A stretch of 5,584 nucleotides of DNA from JBFMHD01 sp040752395 [NCBI: Candidatus Hydrogenedentota bacterium]. GTDB lineage: Bacteria > JBFMHD01. Shown piece after piece: positions 13-5,584 of this stretch (position 1 is its first letter; the number at the start of each line of letters is the position of its first letter). Where the stretch lies: contig JBFMHD010000184.1 of NCBI GenBank assembly GCA_040752395.1, forward strand, positions 1 to 5,584. Reading direction: 5' to 3'. A model generated the notes under the pieces. The model did not search any database. It saw only the letters and a list, made by a program, of their open reading frames with translations, and was not told where the DNA came from. The translations under genes and the position numbers were made by a program.

Positions 13-79
13 AGTCTTAAGTCTTGAGTCTTGAGTCTCGAGTCCTGTTTTGACTCACGACTTGCGACTCACGACTCTT
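13..79. repeat. Palindromic double heptamer array downstream of lepA
   Basis: Five 7-base units beginning AGTC (at 13, 20, 27, 34, 41) are followed by TTTT (48-51) and then four 7-base units beginning GACT (at 52, 59, 66, 73). AGTC is the reverse complement of GACT. The four inner AGTC cores pair in perfect register with the four GACT cores around a centre at position 48; three of the 12 inter-core positions also pair by Watson-Crick rules. The three bases after each core vary (TTA, TTG, TTG, TCG, CTG; then CAC, TGC, CAC, CTT). The period and the pairing are read directly from the sequence. The origin is unknown; it resembles the dispersed short tandem heptamer repeats known from some bacteria. 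It is neither a CRISPR nor an insertion sequence. Confidence 0.85.
20..76. terminator. Possible hairpin terminator between lepA and the window edge
   Basis: The two heptamer arms can fold into an imperfect stem (20-44 with 52-76) with a 7-base loop (45-51). It has 19 Watson-Crick pairs, with internal mismatches where the units differ. Reading on the plus strand the stem is followed by CTTTTC, a short T run, so it would best suit transcription coming from the left of the window. Reading on the minus strand, the direction of lepA, no T tract directly follows the stem. It may nevertheless slow or end lepA transcription, or protect the 3' end of the message. That role is inferred. Confidence 0.35.
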
Positions 80-137: not shown

Positions 138-1931
138 TTATTCAGGTTCGTTTGCGCGCAGGACAGCGAGGAAGCCTTGTTGCGGGATCTCGACCTTACC
201 GATTTTCTTCATTCTTTTTTTACCCTCTTTCTGTCGTTCGAGCAGTTTTCGTTTACGAGTCACGTCACCGCCATAACATTTTGCTGTCACGTTCTTGCGA
301 AGCGCTGATATGTTCTCCCGAGCTATCACTCGACTGCCTGTGGCTGCCTGGATCGGGATTGTAAATAGATGTCGTGGGATGACCTCTTTTAATTTCTTAA
401 CAAGATTTTTGCCGTATCTATAAGCCTTTGTTTTATGAACAATGACACTTAATGCATCAACGGGTTCATCATTAACTAAGATATTAATTTTAACCATATC
501 TGATTTTTTGTAATGAAGGTTGCTGTAATCCATTGATGCATAACCTCTGCTAATTGATTTTAGTTTATCATAGAAATCAAATATCATTTCAGTTAACGGC
601 ATCTCATATTCGAGCATCACTTTCTCGCAGTCAAGATATATCATCTCTTTTTGTATAGCTCTTCTGTCATTTAAAATATCCAGTATAGAGCCAACATAAA
701 AGGAAGGTGATACTATCTTCAGGTCAAGATAAGGTTCTTCGACGTAATCAATCATAGCGGTATCTGGGAATTTAGAAGGATTTTCACAGTAAGCGGTCTC
801 GTTATTTTTCATAACAACTTTATATTTTACGTTAGGCGCGGTAACAATCAGATCGAGATTAAATTCTCGCTCTAATCGTTCCTGAATAATCTCCATATGT
901 AATAATCCGAGGAATCCGCATCTATATCCAAAGCCGAGTGCATTAGATGTTTCCTGGCTGAACTCAAACGATGTATCATTTAAGTGAAGTTTTAGAAGCG
1001 CTTTTTTTAATTCTTCGAAATCAGTGCCTCTTACAGGATACATACCACAAAAGACCATAGGCTTTAGTTCTTTATAACCTGGTACAGGTTTTATTTCAGG
1101 GACTGAGACATTATAAAGCGTATCACCTATCTTTATTTCGCGTAAACTTTTAAACCCGGCGATACAATAACCGACCTCACCTGCTGTAAGTTTATCAGAT
1201 GGGGCTCTTTCAGGCGTAAGATAACCTATCTCCTGAACCTCATAAACTTTCTCTCCGCTATAAAATTTTACTTTCATCTTTTGTTTAATTTTACCATCAA
1301 ACACTCTGATATAAATGACACCTGCAACGTAATCATCATATTTAGCATCAAAAACAAGTGCTTTGAAAGGGGCGTCAGTTGAGCCAGAGGGTGGTGGAAT
1401 CCGCTCTATAATACTACAAAATACGCTGTCAATTCCCTCTCCTGTTTTGGCACTTATATAAAGTATCTCATCTTTAGAAAAACCAAGGTCTATAATCTGA
1501 TTTCGTATTCTATCAAGATTTATGTTTTTAACATCTATTTTGTTAATGACAGGTATGACAATCTTACCTGTATCCATAGCGAGATATAAATTAGCAATGG
1601 TCTGGGCTTCAACGCCCTGTGTCGCATCAACAAGTAATATGACGCCTTCGGTTGCCCCTAAAGATCTTATAACTTCGTATGAAAAATCAACGTGTCCTGG
1701 TGTATCGATAAGATTTAAGATATATTCTTCATTACGAAAATTATATTTTAGTCTTGCGGTATTTGCTTTAATAGTTATGCCCCGTTCTCTTTCTATCTCC
1801 ATATCATCCATAATGAGTTCTATTTTTTCTTTTTTTTGTAATAGTCCTGCTTTTTCAATGAGTCTATCAGATAAAGTGGATTTACCATGGTCTATATGAG
1901 CTATTATGGCAAAATTTCGAATATTGTTCAT
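138..1931 (-). CDS. lepA: Elongation factor 4 (LepA), ribosome-associated translational GTPase
   Basis: This 597-residue protein has the full usual LepA length. LepA binds the ribosome and hydrolyses GTP; it has been linked to back-translocation and to initiation or ribosome assembly. All five G motifs are visible: AHIDHGKST (11-19), RGITI (50-54), DTPGH (76-80, with the catalytic His80), NKID (130-133) and SAK (160-162). Beta-barrel domain II follows (about 186-280), then domain III with the family stretch GFGYRCGFLGLLHMEII (333-349), the EF-G-like domain V (about 395-480) and the LepA-specific C-terminal domain, with its hallmark KCYGGDVTRKRKLLERQKEGKKRMK at 551-575. The ATG shares one base with the ptsI stop (TAATG). 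AGGTG (1942-1946) lies 10 nt upstream, which suggests translational coupling. The last 75 or so codons are much richer in GC than the rest (see findings). Identification is secure. Confidence 0.98.
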   Translation of the reverse strand: MNNIRNFAIIAHIDHGKSTLSDRLIEKAGLLQKKEKIELIMDDMEIERERGITIKANTARLKYNFRNEEYILNLIDTPGHVDFSYEVIRSLGATEGVILLVDATQGVEAQTIANLYLAMDTGKIVIPVINKIDVKNINLDRIRNQIIDLGFSKDEILYISAKTGEGIDSVFCSIIERIPPPSGSTDAPFKALVFDAKYDDYVAGVIYIRVFDGKIKQKMKVKFYSGEKVYEVQEIGYLTPERAPSDKLTAGEVGYCIAGFKSLREIKIGDTLYNVSVPEIKPVPGYKELKPMVFCGMYPVRGTDFEELKKALLKLHLNDTSFEFSQETSNALGFGYRCGFLGLLHMEIIQERLEREFNLDLIVTAPNVKYKVVMKNNETAYCENPSKFPDTAMIDYVEEPYLDLKIVSPSFYVGSILDILNDRRAIQKEMIYLDCEKVMLEYEMPLTEMIFDFYDKLKSISRGYASMDYSNLHYKKSDMVKINILVNDEPVDALSVIVHKTKAYRYGKNLVKKLKEVIPRHLFTIPIQAATGSRVIARENISALRKNVTAKCYGGDVTRKRKLLERQKEGKKRMKKIGKVEIPQQGFLAVLRANEPE

Positions 1932-3679
1932 TAATCAAAAGCACCTATTTTTTTGAGTATAGGACCGATAGTTTTTTTCAGTTTTTTTTCTACTAATTCA
2001 TGGGAGGGTAGTTCAAGAAGTGGTGGGATTATATTTTTAATCGTGGTTGTATCTAAATGCATAATTATATTTTTCACTTCAAGTAAAGAGGCTATACTGA
2101 CACTGAATTCTCTAATCCCAAGACCAATCAATAGTGGAATGAACTCAATTTCAGAAGCCATCTCGCCACAAATCCCCACTTCAATACCTGCTTCATTAGC
2201 TGCGTCAACGGTTTCTTTGATTAATCTAAGGTTTGCGGGGTGAAGCGGGTTATACAAATGTGCCACGTGTTCATTACCTCTATCAACCGCGAGAGTATAT
2301 TGCAGCAAATCATTTGTACCTATTGAAAAGAAATCAACAATTTTTGCAAAATGTTTAGCTAAAAGGGCGGCAGCTGGTATCTCAATCATTATACCCACTT
2401 TTATATCGGTCTCTTTTTTTAATTCTTCTTTTGCCTTCTGTAAGCACTTTTTTGCTTCCTGTAACTCATATATATTCGATATCATAGGAAACATAACATA
2501 AACATTACCGTGTTCAGAGGCACGCAGGATAGCCCGCAGCTGAGTAATAAACATATCTTTGTTAAATAAAGAAAATCTTATTGCGCGTAACCCAAGGAAT
2601 GGGTTCTGTTCTCTTATGTATTCACCGTCTTTGAAAACTTTATCTCCACCAACATCAATAGTTCTAATCACCAATGGTTTATCTTTTAATAATTTTACAG
2701 CCTTTAAATATTCCCTGTATTGTTCATCTTCTTTTGGGAAGTCAAGTCTATCAAGAAATAGGTACTCAGTTCTAAAAAGTCCGACACCTTCGGCACCTGT
2801 TTCAAGGGAGGGCACTATTTCATCAGGGTTCTCAATATTTGCCAGAATTTTTATTTTTATGCCGTCAATAGTGACAGTTCCTCGGTCTTTCAAAGTGATA
2901 AGTGTTCTTCTATGTTCTTCAATTTCGAACTGTTTTTTTATATATCTATTTTCAGTCCTTTTTAGAGGATTTAAAATAACTAAACCTTCTTCACCATCGA
3001 TAATCATTTTATCGCCAGGCCTGGCATATATCATAATATCTTTTATTCCAACAACAGCTGGTATATTCAGTGATCGACCAAGGATGGCGGTATGCGAGGT
3101 TCTGCTGCCAACCGCTGTAGCGAACCCGAGAATAAAAGTTTTATCCATACCCGCACTATCAGAGGGTGTTAAATCCTGTGCAACTATAAGTGATGGTTTT
3201 TTAATTTTATGTTTTTCATCCCATTTTGTTAATTTCTTTAATATTCGAAGGCCTACGTCCTGGATATCCATTTTCCTTTCTTTGATATATTCATCATTAA
3301 TATCTTCAAATCTTTCTTTAAATTTCTCTATGGTTTCAAGTAATGCAAACTCAGAATTAATCTTTTCTTTTCGGATTTTACTTGTAACTTCAGTTATTAA
3401 AAGCGGGTCTTCGAGCAGTAATATGTGGGCTTCAAAAATATCGGCTCCGATTTCATCTGTTTTACCACCTATCTTTTCTTTAAGATTTAAAATATCTGCT
3501 TTACACTCCTCTATGGCTTGTTTGACTCTTTGTACCTCTTCTTCAATCTTTCTTGTATCAATCACATATCTTGTTACGTCAATCTCCGGGGTATGAAGAT
3601 TGACTTCGGCTATAGCGATCCCCGGGGACGCAGGTATACCTTGTAATCTTATCTCTTGTTTCAGTCTTCTGGCGATCAA
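1931..3679 (-). CDS. ptsI: PTS enzyme I (phosphoenolpyruvate-protein phosphotransferase)
   Basis: This cytosolic enzyme moves phosphate from PEP to its own histidine and then to HPr. At 582 residues it is a standard full-length enzyme I. From N to C terminus: the start GIPASPGIAIA (14-24), the helical HPr-binding insert (about 45-150), the phospho-His loop GSRTSHTAI (191-199, His196), the swivel segment with GDKMIIDGEEG (222-232), and the PEP-binding barrel with GVGLFRTEYLFL (298-309, Arg303), DVGGDK (342-347), MIEIP (431-435, Glu433 as metal ligand), DFFSIGTNDLLQYTLAVDR (449-467, Asp457) and the catalytic Cys504 in GICGEMASE. No N-terminal GAF domain is present, so it is the sugar-type PtsI form and not PtsP. 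The start is TTG, chosen because GGAGAAG lies 7 nt upstream and the family N terminus follows directly. It begins 2 nt after the ptsH stop and overlaps lepA by one base. Confidence 0.97.
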   Translation of the reverse strand: MIARRLKQEIRLQGIPASPGIAIAEVNLHTPEIDVTRYVIDTRKIEEEVQRVKQAIEECKADILNLKEKIGGKTDEIGADIFEAHILLLEDPLLITEVTSKIRKEKINSEFALLETIEKFKERFEDINDEYIKERKMDIQDVGLRILKKLTKWDEKHKIKKPSLIVAQDLTPSDSAGMDKTFILGFATAVGSRTSHTAILGRSLNIPAVVGIKDIMIYARPGDKMIIDGEEGLVILNPLKRTENRYIKKQFEIEEHRRTLITLKDRGTVTIDGIKIKILANIENPDEIVPSLETGAEGVGLFRTEYLFLDRLDFPKEDEQYREYLKAVKLLKDKPLVIRTIDVGGDKVFKDGEYIREQNPFLGLRAIRFSLFNKDMFITQLRAILRASEHGNVYVMFPMISNIYELQEAKKCLQKAKEELKKETDIKVGIMIEIPAAALLAKHFAKIVDFFSIGTNDLLQYTLAVDRGNEHVAHLYNPLHPANLRLIKETVDAANEAGIEVGICGEMASEIEFIPLLIGLGIREFSVSIASLLEVKNIIMHLDTTTIKNIIPPLLELPSHELVEKKLKKTIGPILKKIGAFD

Positions 3680-3681
3680 AG

Positions 3682-3966
3682 TTATTCTTCTCCAAACTTG
3701 CTGTTAATTAAATCCTCAAAAGCCTTCATAGCTTTGTCCGCATCTTCACCCTCAATCTCTACTTTAATCTTACTGCCTTTAGTTGCAGCAAGCATCAATA
3801 CTCCCATTATAGACTTACCATTAACTCGCTCACCATCTTTTATAAGATAAGTTTCTGATTGAAACTTATTGAGGGTCTGAACAATTAACGCAGCTACGCG
3901 TGCATGTAATCCAAGTTTATTCTGTATCTCAAGTTCTTTCGATATCATTAAAACAGCGGTATTCAT
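3682..3966 (-). CDS. ptsH: HPr phosphocarrier protein
   Basis: HPr is the small phosphocarrier between enzyme I and EIIA proteins. The 94-residue protein has the expected size. NKLGLHARVAALIV (16-29) holds the phosphorylated His21 (family His15) followed by Arg23. NGKSIMGVLMLAA (49-61) holds Ser52, the equivalent of regulatory Ser46, which HprK modifies. Both sites are intact, so the protein can report PEP flux through His and energy state through Ser. The first ATG lies 1 nt after the hprK stop. An AGGA (3978-3981) sits 11 nt upstream, a slightly long spacing. A second in-frame ATG at 3948 would give the more usual N terminus (MISKELEIQ) but has no visible ribosome binding site. Immediate linkage to hprK and ptsI supports one functional unit. 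Confidence 0.96.
   Translation of the reverse strand: MNTAVLMISKELEIQNKLGLHARVAALIVQTLNKFQSETYLIKDGERVNGKSIMGVLMLAATKGSKIKVEIEGEDADKAMKAFEDLINSKFGEE
3687..3693 (-). promoter_or_regulatory. Shine-Dalgarno deciding the TTG start of ptsI
   Basis: GGAGAAG on the minus strand, inside the last codons of ptsH, lies 7 nt before TTG 3679. There is no ATG between the ptsH stop and the conserved enzyme I N terminus, so this site supports the TTG. Confidence 0.7.
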
Positions 3967-3967
3967 A

Positions 3968-4939
3968 TTAAATCTTGTCCTGATTCTCTATCCATTCAAC
4001 GAGTTTTTTATTAAATTCTCTTGCTGCATGATAACCCATCATTTTAAGTCTCTGATTCATAGCAGCCACTTCAATAATCACAGCGATGTTTCTACCTGGT
4101 CTCACCGGGATTAAAATAAGCGGTACTTTTATATCCATAACGTTCTGAAACGAATCCTCAAGTCCCAATCTATCATAATCTCTTGTTTCAACCCATATCT
4201 CAAGATTAACTATAACATCTACCCTGTGTTGTTCTCTTATCGCTCTAACCCCATAAATACTTCTTATATTTATAATACCGACACCGCGGATCTCCATATG
4301 ATGTTTAATAATATGTGCTCCGCTACCTATAAGGATACCGCCTGGCATACGTTTAATATCAACAACATCATCAGCGATAAGTCTATGGCCTCTTTCAATT
4401 AAATCAAGAGCGCTCTCGCTTTTACCGACTCCGCTTTTCCCTATCATAAGTACGCCGACACCAAATACTTCCATAAACACGCCGTGAACAGTAATAGAGG
4501 GTGTGAGTTTTTCTTCTAAGAAATCAGTTATTTTTCTTATGAAATCCGAGGTCGGTTCTTTAACTTTTATAAGTGGCAGTTCTTTATCTACTGCGTATTT
4601 CAGAAGTATCGGCGGTATCTCCATATTTTCTGTTATAAAGATACATGGTATGGGAAAACTAAAATATCTTTCTAAATTTTTTTTTAATTGTTTTTCTGGG
4701 AGACTTAAAAGATAGCTTACTTCATTCTGACCGAAAACCTGAACCTTGTCATAATCAAAATGCTCCAGATAACCTGCTAAAGCGAGGCCTGGTCGATGTA
4801 TGAGCGGTTCACGAATAAAATATTTTTTCAAATTATTCATACCTGCGATGAGTTCTATGTTCTCAGCTATAGCCGGGGACTGGATTATATCAACTATAAA
4901 GCACTCTTTTTTTTCAGGTTTTATTTCAAACTCGTTCAT
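3968..4939 (-). CDS. hprK: HPr kinase/phosphorylase
   Basis: This bifunctional enzyme phosphorylates HPr on its regulatory serine with ATP or pyrophosphate and removes the phosphate by phosphorolysis. With the start chosen here it has 323 residues, close to the family norm. The N-terminal domain carries HRPGLALAGYLEHFD (48-62). The C-terminal kinase domain carries VHG (His152), the P-loop GKSGVGKS (167-174), HRLIADD (185-191, paired Asp190/191), the family signature MEIRGVGIINI (215-225) and the C-terminal VRPGRNIAVIIEVAAMN (279-295). A longer open frame reaches ATG 5020, overlapping the ptsN stop as ATGA. However, the extra 27 residues are hydrophobic, have no counterpart in the family and are almost all encoded by the heptamer repeat, so the ATG at 4939 is preferred. 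A GGAG lies 12 nt upstream of it. The ATG at 4957 is another option but lacks a ribosome site. Function is secure, the start less so. Confidence 0.93.
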   Translation of the reverse strand: MNEFEIKPEKKECFIVDIIQSPAIAENIELIAGMNNLKKYFIREPLIHRPGLALAGYLEHFDYDKVQVFGQNEVSYLLSLPEKQLKKNLERYFSFPIPCIFITENMEIPPILLKYAVDKELPLIKVKEPTSDFIRKITDFLEEKLTPSITVHGVFMEVFGVGVLMIGKSGVGKSESALDLIERGHRLIADDVVDIKRMPGGILIGSGAHIIKHHMEIRGVGIINIRSIYGVRAIREQHRVDVIVNLEIWVETRDYDRLGLEDSFQNVMDIKVPLILIPVRPGRNIAVIIEVAAMNQRLKMMGYHAAREFNKKLVEWIENQDKI

Positions 4940-4951
4940 CTTGTTGCTTCG

Positions 4952-4955
4952 CTCC
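4952..4955 (-). promoter_or_regulatory. Candidate ribosome binding site of hprK
   Basis: GGAG on the minus strand lies 12 nt before the ATG at 4939. The spacing is long for a good site, but it is the only purine-rich match between the pyrimidine-rich repeat and the conserved protein. It supports a start inside 4937-4939 rather than at 5020. Confidence 0.4.
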
Positions 4956-5019
4956 ATTGTAAATTGTAAGTAGAAGTAAGAGGCAAGAAGCAAGATAACG
5001 GAAGAAGTGAGAGGTATCA
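4956..5019. repeat. Heptamer tandem array between ptsN and hprK (copy A)
   Basis: On the plus strand the segment splits into nine 7-base units from 4956: ATTGTAA, ATTGTAA, GTAGAAG, TAAGAGG, CAAGAAG, CAAGATA, ACGGAAG, AAGTGAG and AGGTATC. Positions 4968-5019 match 5521-5565 (copy B), except that copy A has one extra heptamer (TAAGAGG, 4977-4983) and one base change (G at 5013, A at 5559). The array starts at the ptsN stop codon, whose last two bases belong to the shared repeat, and fills most of the ptsN-hprK gap. Every other gene junction in this operon is 2 nt or less. Confidence 0.85.
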
Positions 5020-5478
5020 TTTTTGTTTTTCTTCTTCTTTTATTATTTCATAAATCTCTTTTGCATTTTTAGCACTTAATAAAGCATCACGAAAATAAGC
5101 GTGTTTCAAAAGTCTTGATATATGAGCCAGGGCTTTAACATGGGGCCCTGATTGATCTTCTGGCGCAAGTAAGAGATAAAATATTTTTACAGGTCTGCCA
5201 TCTAAAGCTCCAAAATCTATGCCTTTTAAACTACGTCCAAAAGCTATGATCAAATCAGGTACTGCATTTGTTTTAGCGTGTGGTAACCCTATATCATTAC
5301 CTATACCTGTACTCATTAGTTCTTCTCTCTGCTTAACAGCAGCTATAATAGCGGATTTATCGATATTTTTCTGTTTTTTTAATGCCAGATCAACAAGCTC
5401 CTCAATGACTTCATCTTTTGTGGTGGCTTTTAATGAAGGTTCTATCAAGTCTTCACTCATTATTTCCGTAATCTTCAT
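5017..5478 (-). CDS. ptsN: PTS EIIA protein of the fructose/nitrogen (PtsN) type
   Basis: The 153-residue single-domain EIIA protein accepts phosphate from HPr. The active histidine is His67 in STGIGNDIGLPHAKT (56-70), and a second conserved histidine (His113) lies in GPHVKALAHISRLL (111-124). The N-terminal region, with the conserved acidic/helical stretch ending REELMSTGIG (51-60), is complete, and the length matches stand-alone EIIA-Ntr. No EIIB or EIIC domain is attached or nearby. This argues for a regulatory role as in PtsN, though an EIIA serving an unlinked permease cannot be excluded. The ATG at 5478 is chosen because AGAGGAGGA lies 6 nt upstream and the family N terminus MKITEIM starts there; longer in-frame starts (ATG 5502, TTG 5532) run back through this site and into the repeat. 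It is the first gene of the visible operon. Confidence 0.88.
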   Translation of the reverse strand: MKITEIMSEDLIEPSLKATTKDEVIEELVDLALKKQKNIDKSAIIAAVKQREELMSTGIGNDIGLPHAKTNAVPDLIIAFGRSLKGIDFGALDGRPVKIFYLLLAPEDQSGPHVKALAHISRLLKHAYFRDALLSAKNAKEIYEIIKEEEKQK

Positions 5479-5484
5479 AAAGAA

Positions 5485-5493
5485 TCCTCCTCT
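5485..5493 (-). promoter_or_regulatory. Strong Shine-Dalgarno of ptsN
   Basis: AGAGGAGGA on the minus strand with a 6-nt spacer to the ATG at 5478. It is the strongest ribosome site in the window and fixes the ptsN start against the longer in-frame options. Confidence 0.85.
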
Positions 5494-5506
5494 GAAAAAC
5501 ATTGTA

Positions 5507-5512
5507 ATTATA
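5507..5512 (-). promoter_or_regulatory. Candidate -10 box upstream of ptsN
   Basis: A perfect TATAAT on the minus strand would start transcription near 5500 and leave a leader of about 20 nt that carries the Shine-Dalgarno. No good -35 hexamer is seen at 16-18 nt; the nearest TTGCTT matches lie at spacings of 14 and 21 nt inside the heptamer array. In AT-rich DNA this box can arise by chance. Confidence 0.35.
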
Positions 5513-5520
5513 ATGATATC

Positions 5521-5584
5521 AAGTAGAAGCAAGAAGCAAGATAACGGAAGAAGTGAGAAGTATCAGGACAGGCTACAGGCTACG
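5521..5584. repeat. Heptamer tandem array upstream of ptsN (copy B), open at the window edge
   Basis: Seven-base units on the plus strand run GTAGAAG (5523), CAAGAAG, CAAGATA, ACGGAAG, AAGTGAG, AAGTATC, AGGACAG and so on, ending with two AGGCTAC units (5570-5583). Positions 5530-5558 are identical to 4984-5012 in copy A. Like copy A it lies directly upstream of a gene start, in the same orientation. The array continues past the window, so its full length is unknown. Confidence 0.85.

What the first reader, a model, noticed from the sequence alone, without database searches (positions are those of the whole stretch)
4956..5584. Two leader repeats differing by exactly one heptamer unit, in front of ptsN and hprK
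Positions 4968-5019 and 5521-5565 align with one 7-base gap (TAAGAGG present only in the first) and one substitution. The core of 29 bases (4984-5012 and 5530-5558) is identical. Both copies have the same orientation, both lie just upstream of a gene start, and both are followed on the gene side by a similar ATTACAATG or ATTTACAATG tail. Clean unit-sized gain or loss points to slippage or unit-wise copying in a dispersed heptamer family. Conservation of the core in two adjacent leaders may mean recent duplication, or a cis-acting role such as RNA processing, protein binding or phase variation of leader length.
Basis: partly seen in the sequence, partly recalled or inferred. Interest (0 to 1): 0.6.

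Follow-up and report, generated by a model that had tools for sequence, protein, structure and literature searches.

The report
Copied heptamer arrays in bacterial spacers
Two gaps between neighbouring genes carry copies of the same worn array of 7-base repeats, a kind of spacer DNA also seen in other uncultured bacteria, so this is a real but fairly ordinary example of a poorly understood class of repeats.

Summary
The repeat is real: a 30-base identical core (4983-5012 = 5529-5558) in copies of 52 and 45 nt; 1000 Markov-simulated pairs never shared more than 14 bases. Genes run on the minus strand. Copy 1 fills the ptsN-hprK spacer and overlaps the ptsN stop codon, so it is as much a 3' flank as a leader. 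All three real gaps of the window are 7-base periodic; after lepA two inverted arrays form a hairpin (z -4.4), the leader arrays do not.

No genome or close relative of the window is held. In other uncultured genomes degenerate heptamer arrays are common in gaps: 140 in 99 kb of gap DNA in G055 against 0-8 at other periods from 4 to 13; none in 200 kb of E. coli, and no excess in Myxococcota-type loci. There, dispersed copies can differ by one unit and arrays often come as inverted pairs. This resembles the heptamer STRRs of cyanobacteria. Best reading: locally duplicated STRR-like spacer DNA altered by unit-wise slippage. No evidence here supports a leader function or phase variation.

The parts
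4968..5019 (-). Copy 1: heptamer-periodic array filling the ptsN-hprK spacer; overlaps the ptsN stop codon
5521..5565 (-). Copy 2: same array, one heptamer shorter, upstream of ptsN
4983..5012 (-). 30-nt core identical to 5529-5558; holds the non-periodic stretch TTCCGTTATCTT
5529..5558 (-). 30-nt core identical to 4983-5012
4957..4971 (-). Two further heptamers of another unit (CTTACAA, TTTACAA) up to ATG 4957
5568..5583 (-). TAGCCTG array (2.3 copies) continuing copy 2 to the window edge
13..44 (.). AGTCTTG array, one arm of a hairpin downstream of lepA
   Evidence: TRF 4.6 copies; fold z -4.4 as RNA, -3.0 as DNA
52..77 (.). GACTCAC array, other arm of the hairpin downstream of lepA
   Evidence: TRF 3.7 copies; complementarity not reached by any of 982 random placements
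5017..5478 (-). ptsN-like gene (PTS EIIA type 2)
   Evidence: PF00359, E 1.1e-38
3968..4957 (-). hprK; start could also be ATG 4939
   Evidence: PF07475 and PF02603
138..1931 (-). lepA; with ptsI (1931-3679) and ptsH (3682-3966) the rest of the gene run

Best explanation
The two leader repeats are copies of one stretch of degenerate heptamer-repeat spacer DNA, an STRR-like intergenic array. It was copied from one gap into the neighbouring gap about 0.55 kb away, by template switching or recombination between similar spacers, and replication slippage added or removed one 7-base unit. It is mostly tolerated filler where no promoter is disturbed; any effect on expression would come from the RNA it adds to the transcript. 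Where two arrays face each other in opposite orientation, as after lepA, they form a hairpin that may end or stabilise the transcript. Shown: the repeat, its period, the copy difference, the lepA hairpin, and the abundance of such arrays and inverted pairs in some other genomes. Inferred: the copying, its direction, slippage as the cause, and the lack of a specific leader function.
For: 30-nt core against at most 14 in 1000 simulations. All three real gaps of the window are 7-periodic with different units. In G055, 140 lag-7 arrays in 99 kb of gap DNA against 0-8 for other lags from 4 to 13; 0 in 200 kb of E. coli. G055 families recur across gaps (75 classes for 140 arrays, commonest 17), and two G055 gaps hold the window's unit type. 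Dispersed G055 copies include clean one-heptamer differences. The window's lepA hairpin matches the inverted pairs common elsewhere. The shared non-periodic stretch TTCCGTTATCTT in both copies needs copying, not slippage alone.
Against: The source genome is not held, so dispersal of this very array was not seen beyond the window. The comparison genomes are not close kin (HPrK at most 51% over near full length). The 7-base peak of alignment gaps in G055 is clear with one scoring (22 against 13 at 6, 7 at 8 and 13 at 9) but tied by 9 bases with another (22 and 22). Myxococcota/Deltaproteobacteria loci show no excess of period 7 (6 arrays against 5 at period 6 and 6 at period 9). The 1-base-gap alignment of the two copies removes the unit-sized gap.
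Confidence: 0.65

Rival explanations
1. A cis-acting leader element: the shared core pairs in the mRNA with the start region of the downstream gene and tunes translation of ptsN and hprK together.
For: TTCCGTTATCTT matches the complement of ptsN codons 2-5 at 11 of 12 bases; copy 2 has a partner at the ptsN start that 0.9% of 980 random placements reach; the hprK leader's predicted fold pairs the array with the hprK start.
Against: Leader-start duplex energies rank at 3.5% (ptsN) and 12.5% (hprK) of 375 controls; the hprK leader fold is not unusual (RNA z -1.34) and the ptsN leader folds worse than shuffles (z +2.22); the hprK complementarity is reached by 42% of random placements; no Rfam match at E up to 1.
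Confidence: 0.12
2. A small mobile repeat (MITE- or SDR-like) inserted twice; the heptamer look is part of its sequence.
For: The core includes a non-periodic stretch, and both copies start TGATAC on the gene strand. G055 gaps hold longer non-periodic dispersed modules beside heptamer arrays.
Against: I saw by eye no target-site duplication or clear terminal inverted repeat. No exact 22-mer in genome contigs or 20-mer in viral contigs; only matches near E 5 in plasmids and phages.
Confidence: 0.1
3. A slipping repeat that switches leader length or frame (phase variation): an ATG overlapping the ptsN stop codon (ATGA, 5020-5017) opens a frame through all nine heptamers into hprK, so losing one unit would break that frame.
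For: The frame from 5020 is open through the array into hprK (MIPLTSSVILLLASYFYLQFTMERSNKM).
Against: A pyrimidine-rich array rarely holds stop codons, so the open frame is weak evidence; Pfam hits and relatives' alignments start well inside hprK; the arrays are short or degenerate; no strain data.
Confidence: 0.05

Closest known systems
STRR (short tandemly repeated repetitive) sequences of filamentous cyanobacteria
   Same: Usually 7-bp units, between genes, found at many places, some able to form hairpins, function unknown (PMC2670836, passages seen).
   Different: Not a known cyanobacterial locus; units here are degenerate and differ from gap to gap; the two leader arrays form no clear hairpin.
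GGGAATC / GGGGA(C/T)T heptamers of Xanthomonas and Nostoc
   Same: Intergenic heptamers, under-represented between divergent genes, same gaps in relatives with length and sequence variation, some inverted (PMC4692102, passages and Discussion).
   Different: Those are G-rich with quadruplex potential and one main unit; the window's units are not.
TAACTGA direct repeats of marine Beggiatoaceae
   Same: Intergenic heptamers near gene starts (PMC4679880, abstract, Introduction and Summary sections).
   Different: Fixed unit TAACTGA, mostly overlapping the ribosome-binding site, and related heptamers rarely repeated; here units vary and the ptsN AGGAGG lies outside the array.
Heptanucleotide elements of Geobacter metallireducens
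   Same: Dispersed elements of tandem heptamers; one class has 49 places (PMC2700814, passages seen).
   Different: Fixed unit and unit number per class; also inside genes.

Membership tests
STRR-type intergenic heptamer repeats | Tandem units of 7 bp | tested here: met
   Lag-7 self-match 0.47-0.56 against 0.29; TRF period 7 in five rows
STRR-type intergenic heptamer repeats | Lies between genes | tested here: met
   All three real gaps of the window
STRR-type intergenic heptamer repeats | Can form a hairpin | tested here: inconclusive
   Met for 13-77 (z -4.43); not met for the two leader arrays (z -1.34 and +2.22)
STRR-type intergenic heptamer repeats | Many places in the same genome | not testable with these tools
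   Own genome not held
Phase-variable simple sequence repeat | Long, nearly perfect tandem array | tested here: not met
   3.4 copies at 82% and 2.4 copies at 100%
Phase-variable simple sequence repeat | Unit number varies between cells or strains | not testable with these tools
   No strain or read data; no close relative
TAACTGA repeats | Unit TAACTGA overlapping the ribosome-binding site | tested here: not met
   Units differ and the ptsN AGGAGG lies outside the array
Known structured RNA family (Rfam) | Match to a covariance model | tested here: not met
   0 matches at E up to 1 over the window

The most novel reading that the evidence does not exclude
These arrays belong to a class of short-period, often self-complementary spacer elements present in several uncultured lineages, which keep their gap and their hairpin while their unit is rewritten in both arms together, by hairpin-templated or array-to-array copying. 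Example: G020 and G022 have hprK 90.6% and ptsN 91.6% identical in DNA, yet the hairpin between the two genes is built on TAGCGTA-type units in one and AGCTCAT-type units in the other. The window's two leader arrays would be a recent step of such gap-to-gap copying.
Probability: 0.2. Interest if true: 0.65.

Novelty: new member of a known kind. Interest (0 to 1): 0.35.

Why it matters
Heptamer spacer arrays have long been noted in cyanobacteria and still have no accepted origin or function. The comparison genomes suggest that in some uncultured lineages they fill a good part of the gaps, can keep their place and hairpin while changing their unit, and are copied between gaps. Related pairs such as G020 and G022 would let slippage, templated copying and selection for hairpins be told apart by counting. 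For the window itself the consequence is modest: it is an instance of the class, not a new control element.

Tried and rejected
Exact scans for the core: 0 in genome contigs (22-mer), 0 in viral contigs (20-mer). HPrK in viral contigs: 24 stretches matched a pattern, none confirmed. Leader DNA against plasmids and phages: 3 and 5 records, all near E 5, taken as chance. Leader DNA against 45 genomes of the G001 phylum: 26 had a match at E up to 1, best 0.015 in G055; apart from the G055 heptamer sites I take these as mostly chance. A close relative was not found: HPrK at most 51% over near full length (a 210-residue fragment in G050 reached 54%), full-length LepA at most 55% in 18 genomes, and the HPrK tree leaves the window on a long branch in a set of 50 rows.

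'Seven is universal' was rejected: G020 also has 22 arrays at lag 8 against 39 at lag 7, several being octamer hairpins on TATCAGGA, and Myxococcota-type loci show no excess of period 7. 'Each genome has its own heptamer' was suggested by two gaps and rejected: ACGCTAT is the commonest class in both G020 and G022. A first inverted-partner test in G055 gave 19 of 140 against 13 of 140 controls, weak, since the controls share families; the later test with up to 15 controls per array is the one cited. In it both arms of a hairpin can count as two arrays. One search failed on a parameter and was repeated. In one search seven genomes of the G001 phylum are present as two loci each, so its 8 lag-7 hits in that group come from 4 genomes; one search used one locus per genome.

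Full report
What is there. The window holds five genes on the minus strand: a ptsN-like EIIA gene (5478-5017), hprK (from 4957 or 4939 to 3968), ptsH, ptsI and lepA. From hprK to lepA the genes follow with at most two bases between them; only three gaps are longer: after lepA, between ptsN and hprK, and before ptsN (the first and last are cut by the window's ends). The identical core is 30 nt, and Markov-simulated spacers never shared more than 14 in 1000 trials. From the ptsN stop codon to ATG 4957 the spacer reads as nine heptamers, TGATACC TCTCACT TCTTCCG TTATCTT GCTTCTT GCCTCTT ACTTCTA CTTACAA TTTACAA. Copy 2 has GCTTCTT GCTTCTA where copy 1 has GCTTCTT GCCTCTT ACTTCTA. A 1-base-gap alignment is a close rival.

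All three gaps are heptameric. Lag-7 self-match is 0.56 (4951-5020), 0.47 (5501-5584) and 0.56 (1-100), against 0.29 for the window, with different units: AGTCTTG and GACTCAC after lepA, the GCTTCTT type plus CTTACAA/TTTACAA between ptsN and hprK, the GCTTCTT type plus TAGCCTG before ptsN. After lepA the two arrays are inverted to each other: the RNA fold of 1-90 has -32.9 kcal/mol against -19.4 (sd 3.0) in shuffles, 0 of 200 as good; DNA z -3.0; the complementarity is reached by 0.2% of 988 and 0 of 982 random placements. The two leader arrays do not fold unusually well (RNA z -1.34 and +2.22).

What lives elsewhere. I asked instead whether such arrays occur in other genomes. In the window and 94 fetched loci (67 kb of gap DNA by a simple longest-ORF call) there are 7 lag-7 arrays with at least 25 of 35 matches, at most 1 at any other period from 4 to 12, and 4 in 934 kb of coding DNA (coding DNA has 16 and 20 at periods 6 and 12). 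In 783 kb of one uncultured genome of the G001 phylum, G055, arrays with at least 23 of 35 number 140 in 99 kb of gap DNA; the other lags from 4 to 13 give 0-8 each, lag 14 gives 52. With the same threshold E. coli K-12 gives 0 at lag 7 in 200 kb, and 64 Myxococcota/Deltaproteobacteria loci give 6, no more than at period 6 (5) or 9 (6), so the excess is not universal. The 56 lag-7 arrays scored as coding in G055 are probably partly spurious ORFs. G055 unit classes recur: of 140 arrays ACGAGCT 17, AATTATG 14, AATTCAG 10, ACTAGAT 7, with 75 classes in all. Two G055 gaps carry the window's unit type (L136 near 9224, L135 near 18960).

The one-unit difference has parallels there. Among 772 alignments of at least 45 columns between different G055 gaps, internal alignment gaps number 362, 109, 77, 35, 16, 13, 22, 7, 13 and 4 for lengths 1 to 10: a bump at 7. 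With a second scoring the numbers at 6, 7, 8 and 9 are 17, 22, 7 and 22, so the bump is not unique. Of the eight printed examples with a 7-base gap, six look by eye like clean heptamer indels within matching dispersed copies.

Arrays often come in inverted pairs. In the ptsN-hprK spacer of G004, G020, G021 and G022 (four of the five genomes of one small phylum; G019 has none) heptamer arms face each other around a loop. Just before ptsN, G001, G058 and G059 carry inverted heptamer arms around an inner hairpin, and G003 an array (by eye). Over the 40 genomes with both genes in reach, 11 have a lag-7 array (at least 22 of 35) in one of these two gaps; one low-complexity case (L115) was left out. 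Against the flanks of other arrays as control, an inverted partner of at least 16 of 21 bases is found for 11 of 23 arrays in the G004 group (control 5.5%), 33 of 170 in G055 (10%) and 6 of 9 in 30 other loci of the G001 phylum (19%).

Units turn over. G020 and G022 have hprK 90.6% and ptsN 91.6% identical in DNA, but the hairpin between them uses TAGCGTA-type units in G020 and AGCTCAT-type units in G022, in both arms. Of the G020 arrays, 14 sites in 11 gaps could be mapped to G022; reading them by eye I judge the unit family kept in 5 gaps, changed in 5, and the array missing from G022 in 1. The sample is small and the judgement mine.

Where they sit. In G055, 7 of 58 divergent gaps of at least 60 nt hold an array, against 73 of 239 tandem and 18 of 65 convergent gaps (Fisher p = 0.006; gene calls are crude). 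Rehm et al. report under-representation between divergent genes for Xanthomonas and Nostoc heptamers, and the same gaps in two Xanthomonas species with much length and sequence variation (PMC4692102, Discussion).

Mechanism. The best-supported picture is heptamer-periodic spacer DNA that changes by units, is copied between gaps, and can form hairpins. Copying is inferred from the shared non-periodic stretch TTCCGTTATCTT, which slippage alone would not put in both places. A leader function could not be shown. One observation leans that way and stays open: the core is complementary to the ptsN start region (11 of 12; partner reached by 0.9% of random placements) and, with a bulge, to the hprK start, but duplex energies rank only at 3.5% and 12.5% of 375 controls.

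Place among known things. Closest are cyanobacterial STRRs, described as usually 7-bp repeats, some able to form hairpins between genes, with unknown function (PMC2670836, passages), and the heptamers of Xanthomonas/Nostoc, Beggiatoaceae and Geobacter. MacGregor's introduction, citing Mrazek et al. [quoted passage not shown] Seven paper searches listed no paper that I recognised as describing such arrays in FCPU426-like genomes; the library holds open-licence papers only, and I read four of them in part.

Noticed in passing
window 5464-5475 with 4992-5003 and 5538-5549: The core TTCCGTTATCTT of both arrays is complementary at 11 of 12 bases to the ptsN start region; with a bulge also to the hprK start at 4939. 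Weak against controls.
   Followed up: yes
window 5017-5020: ATGA overlap of the ptsN stop codon with an ATG whose frame runs open through the nine heptamers into hprK (21 codons, hydrophobic); probably not the real start.
   Followed up: partly
L244:14671, L249:8661-8727, L258:13966-14017 (genome G020): Octamer arrays (TATCAGGA type) with nearby inverted octamer arms, so period 7 is not the only one in such spacers.
   Followed up: partly
L135:1-60, L135 near 5830, L135:16556-16620 (genome G055): Longer non-periodic dispersed modules lie beside heptamer arrays; gaps of this genome look like mosaics of both.
   Followed up: no
L095 (G055:C71 near 9240-9347): The gap before a gene that looks like atpA holds facing arrays of the window's unit type; DNA fold z -4.4.
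   Followed up: partly
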